Below are positions 9,502 through 34,712 of a stretch of 40,773 nucleotides of DNA, piece after piece. The stretch comes from an uncultured Bacteroidota bacterium. Lineage in GTDB: Bacteria > Bacteroidota > Rhodothermia > Rhodothermales > UBA10348. The translations under genes were made by a program, and so were the position numbers. The notes below the pieces were generated by a model, which was not told where the DNA came from, ran no database searches, and saw only the letters and a list, made by a program, of their open reading frames with translations. Location: assembly GCA_937877085.1 (NCBI GenBank), contig CALEEY010000072.1, positions 1-40,773 of the forward strand. The letters are read 5' to 3'. Each line of letters starts with the position of its first letter. Positions within the stretch are counted from its first letter, which is position 1.

Positions 9502-11937
9502 ATGTCTGTTTCGACACCAAAGATCTTTTTACAACCGGATTCAGTGCGGCTATTTATCGTCATATTTCTTTTTCTAGTGGTTGGCTGGACTTCCGCAGCC
9601 GCTCAGGAATCCGCAGCCGCCCAGGAATCGGCAGCTGCCCAGGAATCCGCAGCCGCTCAGGAATCCGCAGCTGCCCAGGATCGTGCTGCACCTCCCGCCA
9701 GGCGCCTCAAAATTGGCTTGGTTCTAAGTGGTGGATCCGCCAAAGGGATTGCCCATGTGGGCGTGCTGAAGGTCCTGGAAGAAGAAGGTATTCCGATTGA
9801 TATCCTTTCCGGCACGAGTATGGGCGCTGTGGCTGGGGGACTTTACTCCATTGGATTCAGCGCAAGTCAACTCGAGGACATTGTGTACGACCCAACCTGG
9901 CAAACGACTCTTGGGAACGCCTTTCGAGGCAGAGATCAAAACTTAATGAGTCGGGTGTCTGCCCAAGGAGTTTTGATTGCCCTTCCCACGGAGGGTACGG
10001 AGTTTAAAATTCCGAGTGGAGTTATATCCGGCCAGGAAATCATGACCCTGCTTTCAAGTTGGACATGGTCATTTCAGGATGAAGTCGATTTTTCGAAGCT
10101 GCCCATTCCTCTCGCTGTAGTCGCGACGGATTTGAAGTCCGGTTTGGCCGTGCCGCTTCAGGGCATGTCTCTGCCCACCGCGCTGCGGGCAAGTATGTCC
10201 ATTCCAACCCTTTTTGCTCCCGTGGATATTGGCGGGTCCAAATATATAGACGGCGCCCTCTCTAGAAATTTACCCGCCATCGATGCCATTAGGTTGGGGG
10301 CGGATGTTTTAATTGGCGTGGATGTAGGAGCTCAAGTTGAGGACCTAAATCTAGACGATCCAACGCTTGTGGATGTCTTAATGCACACGGCGTCGTATCA
10401 AGGGTACCAGGCAGATAAAGAGCAACGGGCGCTTTTGGACGTGTTGATTCGCCCCGATATATCGGGGCTGTCCGGTTCCGATTTTGAGGAAGCCGTTGAG
10501 TGGGTGGCGCGTGGCGAAGCGGCTGCCCGCGCAGCTATGCCCAGAATTCGGGAACTGCTCGACTCCCTTGGTATTCCCAGAACGTTTAGGCCTCAAAAAC
10601 TTCGGGTAAATGTACCGAAGTTGGTGGACCAATTGGTCATAACGGCAGGTGCCGATGACGTGTCGTCGCTTGTCGAAAAGAGACTGGGATTGTTTCTGCC
10701 GGCCATGCTTAGCCCCAATCAAGTCGCGGAGGCCATTTCAAATGTTTACTCTACCGGCTTGTTCGATCTGGTGACGTATCAAATGCAGGCGACTTCCGAC
10801 AGCACCCACACATTGACCGTTCTGGCGCAACCGCGCAGAACTCCAGACCGAGTGGGGCTTGGAGTTAGATACGATTCTGAAAATGCAGCCCAAATCTTGT
10901 TTTCCTTGGCGCTTCGAAATCGAGTTCATTTTGGATCGATTACGGAATTCAGGGTCAGCGTAGGTAAGCAAAAACAGCTACAAGCCATATACATGACCGC
11001 GAACACGGGGGACAAAAAGTTCAATTTGGGATTCGGTCTTGACTACTCGGAAGCTCCGATTCGATTTTTCCTGCCGGACCTGTATGCAAAATCCATTTCC
11101 ATCGATCCTGAAGTTCCGGTTCTTAGTATTGCTTTGAATGTTTTCAGCGCGAGTATTTTGGCTGGCTATACGCTCGCCCCCAAAACCAAATTAGGTCTTA
11201 AGGTCAAAGCAGATCGGGTAAGGGTTCAAAGGGAAATAGCCACGGTCTCGACGGCCCCAGGCGTTTTAGATCCTCTTCCGACTAAGAATAAAGACCACTC
11301 CGTGTTTACGACATCTTTTGCTGTTGATAGAGACACTTATGATGACCCATCATTCCCAACAAGCGGTATGCAAATGTCGCTAAGTGGAGGATTAGGCCTT
11401 TCTAGTTCTGAGCCGACCATCGCCACGACGGCCAAACACGGAGGTCGAGGTTTCAAGTTTTTCCGATTCGATTCGCAGGGATTTGTACCCGTTATACCCG
11501 CCATTTCGGTATTTGCGCGGGCCGCGTTGGGATATGGAACGGGGGAAGCCCTTCCGCTGAGTTATCACACGTTTATTGGTGGCACGAGGCCCTCGACGGT
11601 GTTTCCGGGAATATTTTTACCAGTCTACGGCCTCGATTCGCAGGCGCGATTTGGCCGGAAAGCGTATTTGGGAGCCATTGGCGTTCAATGGGAAATGAAA
11701 AAGGATGTATTTGGTCGTTTGCTCGTAAACGCGGGTGGAACGTTCGATATTCTAGTCGACAATGAGAAAACCCGGCTTCCAGCAGAGGTGAGCGATTTGC
11801 TAGCAGAGCCAGCATCGGTCGGCCTCGGTTTCGAGCTAGGCGTCCGGACTCCGCTTGGACCAGCCACATTCATTTTGAGCTCTCAGGAACTAATGAAGTG
11901 GCCTGAGTTGAGCATAAGTGTGGGGTATTCCTTTTAA
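9502..11937 (+). CDS. Patatin-like phospholipase with POTRA and outer-membrane beta-barrel (type Vd autotransporter)
   Basis: The 811-residue protein has four parts. (1) A signal peptide, followed directly by five SAAAQE-type repeats (residues 31-60). (2) A patatin lipase domain at about 67-355, with oxyanion loop GGSAKG (77-82), nucleophile Ser106 in GTSMG and catalytic Asp250 in DGA. (3) A POTRA-like segment at about 366-444 (LRVNVPKLVDQLVITAG ... VYSTGLFDLVTYQM). (4) A beta-barrel from about 450 to the end with alternating strands and terminal aromatic Phe, the BamA recognition sign. This order matches the PlpD/FplA class (type Vd), in which the lipase is displayed or released through its own barrel. 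The SulP gene follows after ten bases. The predicted activity is phospholipase A at the cell surface. Confidence 0.92.
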   Translation: MSVSTPKIFLQPDSVRLFIVIFLFLVVGWTSAAAQESAAAQESAAAQESAAAQESAAAQDRAAPPARRLKIGLVLSGGSAKGIAHVGVLKVLEEEGIPIDILSGTSMGAVAGGLYSIGFSASQLEDIVYDPTWQTTLGNAFRGRDQNLMSRVSAQGVLIALPTEGTEFKIPSGVISGQEIMTLLSSWTWSFQDEVDFSKLPIPLAVVATDLKSGLAVPLQGMSLPTALRASMSIPTLFAPVDIGGSKYIDGALSRNLPAIDAIRLGADVLIGVDVGAQVEDLNLDDPTLVDVLMHTASYQGYQADKEQRALLDVLIRPDISGLSGSDFEEAVEWVARGEAAARAAMPRIRELLDSLGIPRTFRPQKLRVNVPKLVDQLVITAGADDVSSLVEKRLGLFLPAMLSPNQVAEAISNVYSTGLFDLVTYQMQATSDSTHTLTVLAQPRRTPDRVGLGVRYDSENAAQILFSLALRNRVHFGSITEFRVSVGKQKQLQAIYMTANTGDKKFNLGFGLDYSEAPIRFFLPDLYAKSISIDPEVPVLSIALNVFSASILAGYTLAPKTKLGLKVKADRVRVQREIATVSTAPGVLDPLPTKNKDHSVFTTSFAVDRDTYDDPSFPTSGMQMSLSGGLGLSSSEPTIATTAKHGGRGFKFFRFDSQGFVPVIPAISVFARAALGYGTGEALPLSYHTFIGGTRPSTVFPGIFLPVYGLDSQARFGRKAYLGAIGVQWEMKKDVFGRLLVNAGGTFDILVDNEKTRLPAEVSDLLAEPASVGLGFELGVRTPLGPATFILSSQELMKWPELSISVGYSF
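9592..9681 (+). repeat. Five 18-bp tandem units encoding SAAAQE at the signal-peptide junction
   Basis: The units start at 9592, 9610, 9628, 9646 and 9664. Unit 1 is TCCGCAGCCGCTCAGGAA. The first four encode SAAAQE and the fifth SAAAQD. Differences among the first four are only at third codon positions (TCC/TCG, GCC/GCT, GCT/GCC), so the peptide is conserved while the DNA has drifted. Each unit contains an A-x-A|Q site. Confidence 0.95.
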
Positions 11938-20809: not shown

Positions 20810-21114
20810 TGGCGGGAACGGGGAGAGGTGGCGTGATTGAGGGGAGAGGTGGCGTGATTGAGGGGAGAGGTGGCGGGATCAGGGGGGAGGAAAGTTGTTA
20901 GAATGAAGACATGTTTTTTTAGAAGGAAACTGGCGTGATTAGGGGAAAACCGTTGTGATTGAGGCGGAAACAACCGTTTTTCGAAGAAAGATTGGCGCGA
21001 TTGAGCGATAGCTGTCGTGATTTAGGAAGAACTGGCGTGATCAGGGGGAAAATGGCGTGAGTAGCGAAAACCTGGCGCTGTTGGGAGGAAAAATATCGCT
21101 GAGAATGTGAAAAC
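20810..21114. repeat. Degenerate 20-21 bp tandem array, about 15 units, in the helicase leader
   Basis: Units begin at about 20810, 20829, 20850, 20871, 20892, 20912, 20931, 20951, 20972, 20993, 21013, 21033, 21053, 21073 and 21094. The consensus is close to TGGCGTGATTGAGGGGAAAA. Units 2 and 3 are identical; units 5, 6 and 9 are badly eroded. Spacing stays at 19-21 bp even where sequence has drifted. The period is not a multiple of three, so it is not coding. It fills most of the 437-base gap between phnA-like and the DEAD-box helicase gene. There are no spacers, so it is not a CRISPR array. Confidence 0.9.
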
Positions 21115-30627: not shown

Positions 30628-30780
30628 AATTCCGATAATGTTGGTGAATTCCCCTTGACGCGTTGCTCGCATTTCGGTTCTCTTATGTTCGCGACGAATA
30701 AATGATTATATTCCATTTAGCTTGTAATGACGTGTAATAACAAGTTGTGGTTTTACTCACTTAACCCAAAAACTGAAGAC

Positions 30781-31746
30781 ATGCAGAACGCCCATTGGAA
30801 TAAAAAAATCGCAGTTATCTTCGTGTTTTCGTTGTTTTGGATTGGCAATGCCGGTGGCCAAAACAACGCTAGCGGCCAAAACAACGCTAGCGGCCAAAAC
30901 AACGCTAGCGGCCAAAACAGGGCCAGTGGCCAAAACAGCGAAAATAATCTGCACTTTCTGGTCCAAGCTGAAGATCTTGTCGGTCAAACGGAAAATAATC
31001 CTGTCGTTTTTCTTCACGTCTCGGCCGATGTCAACAATTACCTAGAGAATCACATCGAGGGCGCCCGCTTTTTGGACCTAAATCGAATCGCGTACAACGG
31101 AAAAGACGTTATGCGGGATTTGCCGATTGTCGACTCGCTGCTAGTCGCTTTTCACTCCGTGGGCATTAATGATGGGGACCGAGTCATCCTCTATGGCGAT
31201 TCCAATGGCATGTCTGCAACCCGGGCATTCTTTGCCCTAGACTATCTGGGATTTACTTCCATGGCGCTCCTAGATGGAGGGCTCGCGTCTTGGACTACTG
31301 CTGGTGGCGCCGTTGCGAAGGAGGCACCAACCGAGTACCCGAAGGGCTCCTTTCATGCCGCCTCGCAATCCGAAAAGTTTGTAACGGCCGAAGAGGTTTC
31401 CAGGCGACTATCTTCCAGTTTGCTCATTGATGCCCGATCCGAAGCCGAATTCACCGGGGAAACGCCAGGGAATACCATTTTGAGGGGGGGCCACATACCT
31501 GGAGCCCTATCCATCGACTCCGCTCGGAACCTTCAAGCCAATGGAAAGCTACTTCCAATAGATCAGCTCGAAGCGATGTATGCAGACGCTGCCGGAGAAC
31601 ACACCATTGTGTATTGCCGCACCGGAATGAAAGCCTCGAATTCTTATTTTGTTGCTAGATTGCTCGGGATTGATGTTTCGTTGTACGACGGTTCGTTTTT
31701 TGATTGGAGTAATCTGACTGAGTTTCCGGTACAGAAAGGGAAATAG
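30781..31746 (+). CDS. Secreted two-domain sulfurtransferase (rhodanese/3-mercaptopyruvate sulfurtransferase type)
   Basis: From the ATG at 30781 the protein has 321 residues. A signal peptide (KKIAVIFVFSLFWIGNAGGQ) leads directly into five SGQNNA-type repeats (residues 25-54). Two rhodanese folds follow, at about 60-190 (inactive half; HIEGARFLDLNRIAYN, DRVILYGDSNGMSATRAFFALDYLG) and 205-320 (active half; LLIDARSEAEFTGE, GHIPGALSIDS). The catalytic loop is CRTGMK with Cys279; the second-position Arg is the thiosulfate-type rather than the mercaptopyruvate-type pattern. Export is usual for detoxifying sulfurtransferases. It transfers sulfane sulfur from thiosulfate or a related donor. Confidence 0.9.
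   Translation: MQNAHWNKKIAVIFVFSLFWIGNAGGQNNASGQNNASGQNNASGQNRASGQNSENNLHFLVQAEDLVGQTENNPVVFLHVSADVNNYLENHIEGARFLDLNRIAYNGKDVMRDLPIVDSLLVAFHSVGINDGDRVILYGDSNGMSATRAFFALDYLGFTSMALLDGGLASWTTAGGAVAKEAPTEYPKGSFHAASQSEKFVTAEEVSRRLSSSLLIDARSEAEFTGETPGNTILRGGHIPGALSIDSARNLQANGKLLPIDQLEAMYADAAGEHTIVYCRTGMKASNSYFVARLLGIDVSLYDGSFFDWSNLTEFPVQKGK
30853..30942 (+). repeat. Five 18-bp tandem units encoding SGQNNA at the signal-peptide junction
   Basis: The units start at 30853, 30871, 30889, 30907 and 30925. Units 2 and 3 are identical (AGCGGCCAAAACAACGCT); unit 1 differs at its first codon (GGT), and units 4 and 5 diverge at the end (SGQNRA, SGQNSE). Each contains a small residue followed by Gln, the same pattern as the likely cleavage junction. 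Confidence 0.95.
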
Positions 31747-31947: not shown

Positions 31948-33087
31948 ATGTCCAAATTTGTAGCGTTAACCCTAGGTGCTCTCGCTCTCGCCGTTTTTAC
32001 CTTCGTGGGGAATCCGGCCTTTGCGCAAACCCGAACCTTTTCCGAGGCGCCACAAATTCTATTGGGTCTACGGACAGATCGGTCCGCTTCGCTCGCGTTT
32101 GCCGATATCGATAAAGATGGCGATCTGGATGTCTTGGTGGCTAATGGTAGGCACTGGCCGGCTCAAAATGAGGTGTTTATTAATAACGGCAAGGGCCGCT
32201 TTATGGAGAGTTATCCCTTCGCTTTGGAAAGCCGAACAACGTATACCGTGCCCATGGCAGATTTGGATGGCGATGGGGATTTAGATGCCATAGAAGCCAA
32301 TGATTTGACGCAAAACCGTGTTTATCTGAACGACGGAATGGGACGGTTTAACGAAATAGCACCGCTAGGACCTGAAGTGGAATCCACTCGAAGCGTGAGC
32401 ATTGCCGATCTAAATGGAGACGGCAAGCCAGACGCCCTCGTAACCAACCGAGGCATGGAAAACGGCATTTACCTCGGAAATGGGGACGGCACTTTCGGCG
32501 CCAAAATACCGTTTGGAACGAGCGATGATTCCACTATTTCGGTGGCGGTAGAGGATATCGACTTAGATGGCAAACCCGATCTTGTTTTGGCAAATCGCGA
32601 TGGTGGTGCCAATTTCATCTATTTAAATGACGAGAAACTCAGCTTTTCACGCTCCATTCCTTACGGTAGCGGAATGGACGAGACGCGCTCGACGGTCGTA
32701 GGGGACCTAAATGCCGATGGACATCTCGACCTCGTGACCGCGAATATTGGCGAGGCGAACGGTATCTATTTCGGCAACGGAAAAGGCGACTTCAGTCAAG
32801 GGATTACGTTTGGAGCGAAAGACGGCGAGAGTTACGACGCCCTGTTGGTCGATTTAGACAAAGACGGGGATCTTGACATTGTAATTGCCAATGTGGGCTC
32901 GCAAAATGCCGTTTATTTCAATGACGGAACCGGTCGCAATTTTGTAGAAGTACTATTCGGCGGTGCCCAAGATCAGACCTACGGCATAGCAGTTGGCGAT
33001 GTGAACGGAGATGGCTTTCCTGATATCGGCGTCGCGAATTCCGATGGCCTAAACGGGATTCACCTCAACCAAGCTGCGCGCCGTTAA
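31948..33087 (+). CDS. Secreted FG-GAP/VCBS seven-bladed beta-propeller protein
   Basis: The 379-residue protein has a signal peptide cleaved at PAFA|Q27. Seven repeats follow, each with a calcium-loop DxDxDGxxD variant: DIDKDGDLD, DLDGDGDLD, DLNGDGKPD, DIDLDGKPD, DLNADGHLD, DLDKDGDLD, DVNGDGFPD. Each is followed by a V-x-A-N-x-G strand and an 'N-x-(V/I)-Y-x-N-x-G' blade edge. Seven units close a complete propeller. There is no C-terminal sorting domain or anchor, so it may be released. The role is probably binding of polysaccharide or protein; no enzyme motif is seen. Confidence 0.9.
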   Translation: MSKFVALTLGALALAVFTFVGNPAFAQTRTFSEAPQILLGLRTDRSASLAFADIDKDGDLDVLVANGRHWPAQNEVFINNGKGRFMESYPFALESRTTYTVPMADLDGDGDLDAIEANDLTQNRVYLNDGMGRFNEIAPLGPEVESTRSVSIADLNGDGKPDALVTNRGMENGIYLGNGDGTFGAKIPFGTSDDSTISVAVEDIDLDGKPDLVLANRDGGANFIYLNDEKLSFSRSIPYGSGMDETRSTVVGDLNADGHLDLVTANIGEANGIYFGNGKGDFSQGITFGAKDGESYDALLVDLDKDGDLDIVIANVGSQNAVYFNDGTGRNFVEVLFGGAQDQTYGIAVGDVNGDGFPDIGVANSDGLNGIHLNQAARR

Positions 33088-33166
33088 CCGCTTGCGCCGT
33101 TAACTCCTTGCGCCGCTTCAGGTCACCGATTTTCCAACTCGTGCCCGTTTTAGATCGCCTGGCGGT

Positions 33167-34636
33167 CTATTTGACTATGATCGTTTCCAGGTGAACCGGC
33201 GTTATTACCTGGGTTTGTGGGGATATGGCGGCGGCGGCCTCGATAAAAGGCTTAATATTTCGATCGATTCCCGACTGTTGGGAATAGCCATAGGGCAGAC
33301 GGAAATTATCCCAATGGGATGGAATGACCACCGCTGGATACCCAGTAACCTTTAGCAGCCGCTCGTCATATTTGTACAGACCCAGTCTCGATCCGTTGAT
33401 TCCCGCTAGCAGCACATCTGGGTGAATTCCCTCTAGTTCACGCTCGACAAAGTTCATGGAGCCCATGGTCAAGACGTCGTGATTTTCGAACCTAGCTAAA
33501 AACATCAACGAGCCGCCCTCTATAAACTGGTTGATGAGCAGAGGTGCTTTTAGAGGAGTGTTTTCGTCAAATCGTCTGGTGTCGAAATAGTGCTTTTCCT
33601 CCAGAGCGGAATGAATGGACGGTACGACGCGCACGGAAAAGCCCTCAAACTGATAGTCCTCGCCGCCCCCAACAGCGTACAACTGCTCTTCGGGAATACC
33701 ATATGCGCGCAGAATGGACATGGTCGTCTCCGTCCCAATGACCTTGGCACCGGTTTTCCGGGCGATATAGGGCACGTCTCCAAGGTGGTCAAAGTGTCCG
33801 TGATGCACCAGGATGAAATCGGCCTTTTTGATTATGCTATCGATTAAAACGGTGTCAGAAACGGCCACTGCGTCGCGCGCATAGTCCGGACGATGGTCTT
33901 CGGGGTCGCCTCCTCCGCCATATTTTAGGCGAGAGATATACGGATCGATAAGGACGGTCACATTCCCATCGTTAATTTCCCAACCAGCCGTTCCGAGGTA
34001 CTTCATGAGGAGCGGTTGACGGGCTTCGCTGGAAACGGCCCGCGCGTCCGAATCGTCGGTGACCTCAACAATCATTTCTATTTCGATGGACTGTCCCCGG
34101 GGCAATGATGCCATGCCGACTGCGGAGCGTGCGTGGCGGCCCCGTTCTCCAAAGACCTCGACAATCAGATCTGAAAAACCATTGATAACGGCAGGTTGAT
34201 CGCCAAAACTGGGGTCTGAATTGACCATTCCTAGTACTTTCACCACCCGCACGACCCGGTTCAGATTGCCGAGCATGTTTTTGAGGACCGCGAGTTGATT
34301 GATGGCCGTTTGGCGCGCGCCTTTATACCCCTCTTCAATCGTGACATCGGCGCCCACTTTTCCATGCAATTCACTCCCATCGGCGAATTTGGCGCCTTTT
34401 CCGGCCGTAAAGATCAAATTACCCGTCCTTACCCCATTAACGTAGTTGGCTACAGGGCTTTGAGGATTTGGGAGCGTAATGCCCAGTTCGACCAGGCGAG
34501 CCTCCGGGTCAAAAATGGCTTCATTTTGGGCGGCTTCATGCTGGGCGGCACCATTTTGAGCAAAAACAGTACTTGGCGCGCCCAAAAGGAAAAGCCCGGT
34601 GGCGAATAGAAAAACGCTTTTTAACTGCCTGAACAT
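33167..34636 (-). CDS. Secreted fusion: RidA domain plus metallo-beta-lactamase-fold hydrolase
   Basis: From the ATG at 34636 (an upstream TTG at 34642 adds two residues) the protein has 489 residues. The signal peptide ends VFA|Q, followed by three AQNEA-type repeats (26-40). Residues ~45-192 are a RidA domain (VRTGNLIFTAGKGAKFADGSELHGKVGAD ... RHARSAVGMASLPRGQSIEIEMIVEV) with its Arg170 retained. Residues ~205-489 are a metallo-beta-lactamase fold of the UlaG-like branch, with the metal motif HHGHFDH (278-284) and later VVPSIHSA, TMGSMNF and VIPSHWDN, whose His residues can complete the site. The fusion suggests enamine/imine hydrolysis coupled to ring or ester hydrolysis outside the cytoplasm (inference). 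Confidence 0.88.
   Translation of the reverse strand: MFRQLKSVFLFATGLFLLGAPSTVFAQNGAAQHEAAQNEAIFDPEARLVELGITLPNPQSPVANYVNGVRTGNLIFTAGKGAKFADGSELHGKVGADVTIEEGYKGARQTAINQLAVLKNMLGNLNRVVRVVKVLGMVNSDPSFGDQPAVINGFSDLIVEVFGERGRHARSAVGMASLPRGQSIEIEMIVEVTDDSDARAVSSEARQPLLMKYLGTAGWEINDGNVTVLIDPYISRLKYGGGGDPEDHRPDYARDAVAVSDTVLIDSIIKKADFILVHHGHFDHLGDVPYIARKTGAKVIGTETTMSILRAYGIPEEQLYAVGGGEDYQFEGFSVRVVPSIHSALEEKHYFDTRRFDENTPLKAPLLINQFIEGGSLMFLARFENHDVLTMGSMNFVERELEGIHPDVLLAGINGSRLGLYKYDERLLKVTGYPAVVIPSHWDNFRLPYGYSQQSGIDRNIKPFIEAAAAISPQTQVITPVHLETIIVK
34517..34561 (-). repeat. Three 15-bp tandem units (AQNGA, AQHEA, AQNEA) at the signal-peptide junction
   Basis: On the minus strand the codons GCTCAAAATGGTGCC, GCCCAGCATGAAGCC and GCCCAAAATGAAGCC follow each other immediately after the hydrophobic core. 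The first contains the predicted A|Q cleavage junction and each later copy reproduces it. The nucleotide copies differ at several third positions. Confidence 0.85.
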
Positions 34637-34712
34637 GGTCAAATATCTTTTGGTTTACTCACGAGGGGCAGGAAGATATCCCGCATTCGAGGGAACGAGC
34701 CGGCGCTTTTAC

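What the first reader, a model, noticed from the sequence alone, without database searches (positions are those of the whole stretch)
9592..9681. Tandem repeats multiply a signal-peptidase/Q-rule junction in the patatin autotransporter
Seen: five 18-bp units encode SAAAQE directly after the hydrophobic core of the signal peptide, and differences among the first four are synonymous. Known: Bacteroidetes signal peptidase I products often start with Gln ('Q-rule'), which can cyclise to pyroglutamate. Inference: each unit recreates an A-x-A|Q site, so the protein could be cut at any of several positions, or the spacer may tune export and length of the surface lipase tether. Two unrelated proteins in the same window show the same phenomenon, so it looks like a recurring process in this genome.
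Basis: partly seen in the sequence, partly recalled or inferred. Interest (0 to 1): 0.75.

Follow-up and report, generated by a model that had tools for sequence, protein, structure and literature searches.

The report
Tandem repeat at a signal-peptide junction
A short stretch of DNA covering the point where an exported lipase is trimmed has been copied five times in a row. It looks like an ordinary, recent copying slip that adds a harmless tail to the finished protein, not a device with several cutting points, although the same slip hit two neighbouring exported proteins.

Summary
Window 9592-9681 holds five 18-bp units, SAAAQE x4 plus SAAAQD, straight after the hydrophobic core of a patatin/Omp85 (PlpD-like) protein. 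Two unrelated exported proteins in the window have the same kind of array: a rhodanese at 30856-30937, and more weakly a RidA/lactamase at 34517-34558. A fourth case lies on another contig.

Congeneric orthologues of all three window genes have a single junction, so the extra copies are a recent gain in this lineage. The lineage follows the Bacteroidetes Q-rule: [AGS]Q peaks 6-7 residues after the hydrophobic core. In each array copy 1 sits at the usual (5-8 residue) distance, which is also the orthologue's. Later copies lie at 11-31 residues, where ordinary proteins show little or no excess. Cleavage at copy 1 is therefore the best prediction, and the rest become a 10-24 residue tail.

The genome carries many short tandem arrays, about six times denser between genes than in them, with coding periods mostly multiples of three. 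Outside this window, junction arrays are not significantly enriched. Best reading: slippage or recombination expansion tolerated at a flexible, in-frame site. Multi-site cutting is unsupported but untested; clustering of three arrays in one contig is unexplained.

The parts
9502..11937 (+). ORF, 811 aa: signal peptide, repeat array, patatin domain, Omp85-type C-terminal domain (PlpD-like, type Vd-like)
   Evidence: the ORF listing; Pfam Patatin aa 73-263 and Omp85 aa 483-791; phmmer to PlpD 5fqu E 1.4e-53
9502..9603 (+). Predicted signal peptide, cleavage predicted after the Ala at 9601-9603 (AAA|Q of copy 1)
   Evidence: hydrophobic core ends 7 residues before the first [AGS]Q; genome-wide peak at 6-7; inference, not measured
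9592..9681 (+). Tandem array, five 18-bp units, SAAAQE x4 + SAAAQD
9718..10290 (+). Patatin-like phospholipase domain (GTSMG and DGA motifs present)
   Evidence: Pfam PF01734; alignment to PlpD
10948..11874 (+). Omp85 superfamily barrel domain
   Evidence: Pfam PF01103
30781..31746 (+). Exported rhodanese-like protein (alternative upstream start at 30727)
30856..30937 (+). Second junction array, 18-bp unit GQNNAS, about 4.6 copies
   Evidence: TRF score 136
33167..34642 (-). Exported RidA (YjgF) + metallo-beta-lactamase-fold fusion protein (start at 34636 or 34642)
34517..34558 (-). Third junction array, 15-bp unit, about 2.8 copies (AQNGA-AQHEA-AQNEA); weak
   Evidence: TRF score 56; 3 of 5000 shuffles reach it; orthologues with one copy

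Best explanation
The array is a recent coding minisatellite. Slippage or unequal recombination duplicated the 18 bp that span the signal-peptide/mature junction of a patatin-Omp85 protein. The insertion was tolerated because it is a multiple of three, because copy 1 keeps the original distance to the hydrophobic core so that signal peptidase I still cuts there, and because the extra residues (24 aa here) only lengthen a flexible N-terminal tail in front of the first folded domain. The repeated A-x-A|Q motif is a by-product of where the duplication fell. Shown: the array, its absence in orthologues, the frame, the distances, the Q-rule peak and the genome-wide background of such arrays. Inferred: slippage as the mutational step, cleavage at copy 1, neutrality of the tail.
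For: Single-copy orthologues in the same genus for all three window genes: patatin G003 'DVVAQEVETHSANRPK' and G002 'EAHAREFLTQS'; rhodanese G001 'VATVQGQSSEKNLQFL', matching the last window copy 'GQNSENNLHFL'; RidA G001 'ALAQDEAAFDPEARL' and G003 'VLAQNEVVYDPEARL'. Core-to-first-Q distance is unchanged: patatin 7 (G003 7), rhodanese 5 (G001 5), RidA 8 (G001 8, G003 7). [AGS]Q peaks at distances 6-7 (26 and 24 of 189 proteins), falling to about 0-5 per position beyond 12. Short tandem arrays are general: own genome sample plus window 0.048/kb in coding and 0.284/kb in intergenic DNA (p 9e-10); coding periods are multiples of three in 27 of 33 against 8 of 25 intergenic (p 1.6e-4); G003 shows the same pattern. 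Coding satellites with periods in multiples of three are known from prokaryotes (PMC6749651).
Against: All four Q-type arrays found begin within about 3 residues of the cleavage point, and three lie in one 41-kb contig (chance about 3e-5 from the sampled rate, before allowing for this window having been chosen for them). Neutral slippage does not predict that clustering. All three differences within patatin units 1-4 are synonymous (p about 0.017 under neutrality; n = 3), a weak hint of constraint on the peptide. Mature N-termini are not measured.
Confidence: 0.68

Rival explanations
1. One reading: each copy is a usable A-x-A|Q site, so signal peptidase I cuts at several positions and always exposes Gln for cyclisation (redundant or heterogeneous N-termini).
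For: In 15 of 16 copies over four arrays the -3 and -1 residues are small or aliphatic and +1 is Gln (sequences). The Q-rule holds in this lineage. N-terminal pyroglutamate stabilises exported proteins in P. gingivalis (PMC10653852).
Against: Copies 2 onward lie 11-31 residues from the hydrophobic core, where ordinary proteins show little or no excess of [AGS]Q. RidA copy 3 has Glu at -3. Orthologues manage with one site. The plant-type glutaminyl cyclase family PF05096 is absent from the genus; the animal-type enzyme was not tested.
Confidence: 0.1
2. The tail is selected: it lengthens or stiffens the segment ahead of the patatin domain (or acts in export), and copy number tunes length.
For: Synonymous-only differences among patatin units 1-4. 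Similar multi-AQ junctions recur sporadically in other genomes, e.g. G030 AQPVAAQPVAAQ, G017 GQEASGQAASGQ, G002 AQSFVAQSAVAQSSEAQ. In two congeners, G070 and G039, the three AAQ motifs are kept while neighbouring residues differ.
Against: Absent in orthologues of the window genes. The three proteins are functionally unrelated, which argues against a shared tether function. No strain-level copy-number data.
Confidence: 0.15
3. The signal-peptide junction is a mutational hotspot in this genome: Ala/Gly-rich c-region codons seed short direct repeats that expand more often than other coding DNA. (Compatible with the best explanation as a statement about rate.)
For: Four Q-type arrays start at the junction. 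Pooling window and sample gives 0.24/kb at junctions against 0.042/kb in other coding DNA, p 0.003. The genome has the largest number of [AG]Q triples in its genus and among the largest excesses over the reversed-pattern control (97 against 40).
Against: The pooled test includes the window chosen for the feature. Without it p = 0.21-0.58, and G003 has 0 junction arrays. Intergenic DNA is denser still.
Confidence: 0.25
4. Assembly artefact in a metagenome-assembled genome.
For: The genome is a fragmented assembly of 332 contigs.
Against: The array is 90 bp, shorter than a typical short read; the units carry distinct synonymous differences; the frame stays open; similar arrays occur elsewhere in the same and other genomes.
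Confidence: 0.03

Closest known systems
Coding minisatellites / in-frame tandem repeats of prokaryotes (e.g. PMC6749651)
   Same: Short head-to-tail units, period a multiple of three inside genes, species-specific, also common between genes
   Different: Here the unit spans the signal peptidase I junction and so copies a processing motif; no description of that was found in the held library
Bacteroidetes Q-rule (PMC5837995, PMC10653852)
   Same: Gln at +1 after A-x-A/G; strong positional peak after the hydrophobic core in this lineage
   Different: Known cases have one junction; here additional motif copies lie downstream where cleavage is not expected
Type Vd autotransporter PlpD / FplA (PMC11116518, PMC5724010)
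   Same: Patatin domain with GxSxG and Asp motif plus Omp85-type barrel; PlpD is the best solved relative, E 1.4e-53
   Different: An 18-bp repeat array lies between signal peptide and patatin domain; the closest orthologues lack it

Membership tests
Coding minisatellite (in-frame tandem repeat) | Head-to-tail copies far above chance | tested here: met
   TRF score 143; 0 of 5000 codon shuffles
Coding minisatellite (in-frame tandem repeat) | Unit a multiple of 3, reading frame open | tested here: met
   18 bp; 811-aa ORF
Coding minisatellite (in-frame tandem repeat) | Lineage-specific gain relative to orthologues | tested here: met
   One junction in G002 and G003 for patatin; likewise for the other two genes
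Coding minisatellite (in-frame tandem repeat) | Copy number varies among strains | not testable with these tools
   No strain set of this species available
Q-rule signal peptidase I substrate | Small residues at -3 and -1, Gln at +1 at the usual distance from the core | tested here: met
   AAA|Q at distance 7; genome peak 6-7
Q-rule signal peptidase I substrate | Gln exposed and cyclised to pyroglutamate | not testable with these tools
   Needs N-terminomics; PF05096 cyclase absent in the genus, animal-type cyclase not tested
Type Vd autotransporter (PlpD-like) | Signal peptide, patatin domain with catalytic Ser/Asp motifs | tested here: met
   Pfam PF01734; GTSMG and DGA aligned with PlpD
Type Vd autotransporter (PlpD-like) | C-terminal Omp85-type barrel in the same chain | tested here: met
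   PF01103, aa 483-791; partial match to the BamA model
Type Vd autotransporter (PlpD-like) | POTRA domain between patatin and barrel | tested here: inconclusive
   No POTRA Pfam hit, but the BamA model match starts at aa 401, before the barrel
Multi-site signal peptidase substrate | Cleavage at more than one copy | not testable with these tools
   Positional evidence argues against it

The most novel reading that the evidence does not exclude
Signal-peptide junctions in this Bacteroidota lineage are preferred sites of minisatellite birth, and the resulting multi-AQ tails are kept because they provide spare A-x-A|Q sites or protected N-termini, making junction expansion a recurrent route to new N-terminal tails on exported proteins.
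Probability: 0.12. Interest if true: 0.6.

Novelty: new variant of a known kind. Interest (0 to 1): 0.3.

Why it matters
If the junction really were a hotspot, or the copies were used, it would show how exported proteins gain N-terminal tails, and would tie the Q-rule to repeat evolution. As it stands, it is a clear example of recent in-frame repeat growth at a processing site, with single-copy orthologues that make it testable by N-terminomics.

Tried and rejected
The loose [AG]Q triple pattern over 60 genomes was too noisy: every genome matched. Pattern searches with a hydrophobic run upstream were more specific but still mixed (of the distinct places re-read, 16 of 24 and 12 of 22 were in frame and open; several of those are not signal peptides). 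A named genome-contig scan returned only one relative, an uncultured Bacteroidetes MAG contig. Literature searches for repeats that copy a signal peptidase junction found nothing relevant in the held library. Structure prediction was not run: the Pfam and PDB hits already settle the domains, and a shallow alignment would say little about a short repeat tail. A Pfam scan of the C2 protein failed on a wrong coordinate for its companion and was not repeated.

Full report
Observation. The array is real: five 18-bp units at 9592-9681, SAAAQE x4 and SAAAQD, following the hydrophobic core of an 811-aa patatin/Omp85 protein. Units 1 and 4 are identical, and units 1-4 differ only synonymously. No codon shuffle of 5000 came near the observed self-match. 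The host protein is PlpD-like: PDB 5fqu, E 1.4e-53, with the GxSxG and Asp motifs aligned.

Recurrence in the window. A secreted rhodanese has GQNNAS x about 4.6 at 30856-30937. A RidA/lactamase fusion has AQNGA-AQHEA-AQNEA at 34517-34558, which is weak on its own (3 of 5000 shuffles) but is supported by its orthologues.

Orthologues. In the same genus the three genes have one junction each. Patatin: G003 DVVAQEVETHSANRPK, G002 EAHAREFLTQS. Rhodanese: G001 VATVQGQSSEKNLQFL, which matches the last window copy GQNSENNLHFL. RidA: G001 ALAQDEAAFDPEARL and G003 VLAQNEVVYDPEARL, against FAQNGAAQHEAAQNEAIFDPEARL. For patatin, G001 is cut by a contig end, so only G002 and G003 count. The extra copies are thus most simply gains in this lineage.

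Q-rule and where cutting should occur. Among 189 single-core proteins of the sampled genome plus window, [AGS]Q peaks at 6 and 7 residues after the core (26 and 24) and falls to about 0-5 per position beyond 12. G003 and G014 show the same peak; the profile was made without using Q or A-x-A to select proteins. In the arrays the Q distances are 7, 13, 19, 25, 31 (patatin); 5, 11, 17, 23, 29 (rhodanese); 8, 13, 18 (RidA); 7, 14, 21 (C2 protein). Orthologue distances to the first [AGS]Q are 7, 5, and 8/7. Copy 1 therefore stands where the ancestral site stood, and cleavage there is the best prediction. That is an inference from position, not a measurement.

Genome background. TRF on about 735 kb of the genome outside the window plus the window itself gives 0.048 arrays/kb in coding and 0.284/kb in intergenic DNA (p 9e-10). 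Coding periods are multiples of three in 27 of 33 against 8 of 25 intergenic (p 1.6e-4). G003 behaves alike. Gene calls and signal peptides come from simple rules of my own, so counts are approximate.

Is the junction special? Outside the window I found one clean Q-type junction array (contig C2, L035 9219-9276, VSG|QGVAVLG|QGVAVLG|QGVAINELMP) and one lipoprotein case (L127, CNPAVKPAVKPADN). Against other coding DNA this is not significant (p 0.58 with one, 0.21 with both). G003 has none. Adding the window gives p 0.003, but the window was picked for the feature. A whole-genome pattern listing shows few other candidates with three or more in-frame copies, e.g. C280 GQNASFGQSAPFGQ, whose context could not be read. 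Three of the four clear cases sit on this contig; that clustering is unexplained.

Other genomes. Pattern searches in 148 related genomes found scattered look-alikes: G030 AQPVAAQPVAAQ, G017 GQEASGQAASGQ, G002 AQSFVAQSAVAQSSEAQ, and G070/G039 FAAAQ(T/A)IAAQP(V/L)AAQ. These are short matches whose genes were not read, so signal-peptide context is likely but unproven.

Conclusion. The best-supported account is a recent coding minisatellite that fell on the junction and was tolerated as an N-terminal tail. Weak hints against pure neutrality (synonymous-only differences, clustering, motif retention in G070/G039) keep a functional or hotspot reading open.

Noticed in passing
window 20820-20890 and 20927-21077: Intergenic tandem arrays of period 21 (3.4 copies) and 20 (7.4 copies, diverged); the window has 7 arrays of score 50 or more, about 2.5 times the genome rate.
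   Followed up: partly
window 33078-33115: 16-bp tandem array of 2.4 copies between the FG-GAP and RidA genes, which converge.
   Followed up: no
window 33167-34642: RidA and metallo-beta-lactamase-fold parts are fused here and in G001, G002 and G003; in G004 and G017 the best hits to the two halves are separate frames or places, and in G009 and G005 a stop lies within or near the match.
   Followed up: partly
L074 15261-15346: A lipoprotein signal peptide whose hydrophobic region itself is a 36-bp tandem repeat (LGSIGLPGLMAL), at a contig end.
   Followed up: no
L035 9219-9276: Fourth Q-type junction array, 21-bp unit QGVAVLG x 2.8, in an exported protein of about 800 residues.
   Followed up: partly
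L127 8833-8871: 12-bp array PAVK just after a lipobox-like cysteine (CNPAVKPAVKPADN).
   Followed up: no
G070:C44:19286-19356 and G039:C39:9070-9140: Two congeneric species share a junction-like FAAAQ-IAAQP-AAQ segment; three residues between the AAQ motifs and core differ while the motifs are kept.
   Followed up: partly
genus g1: No plant-type glutaminyl cyclase (PF05096) in the window's genome or five congeners; one order-level relative (G031) has it.
   Followed up: partly
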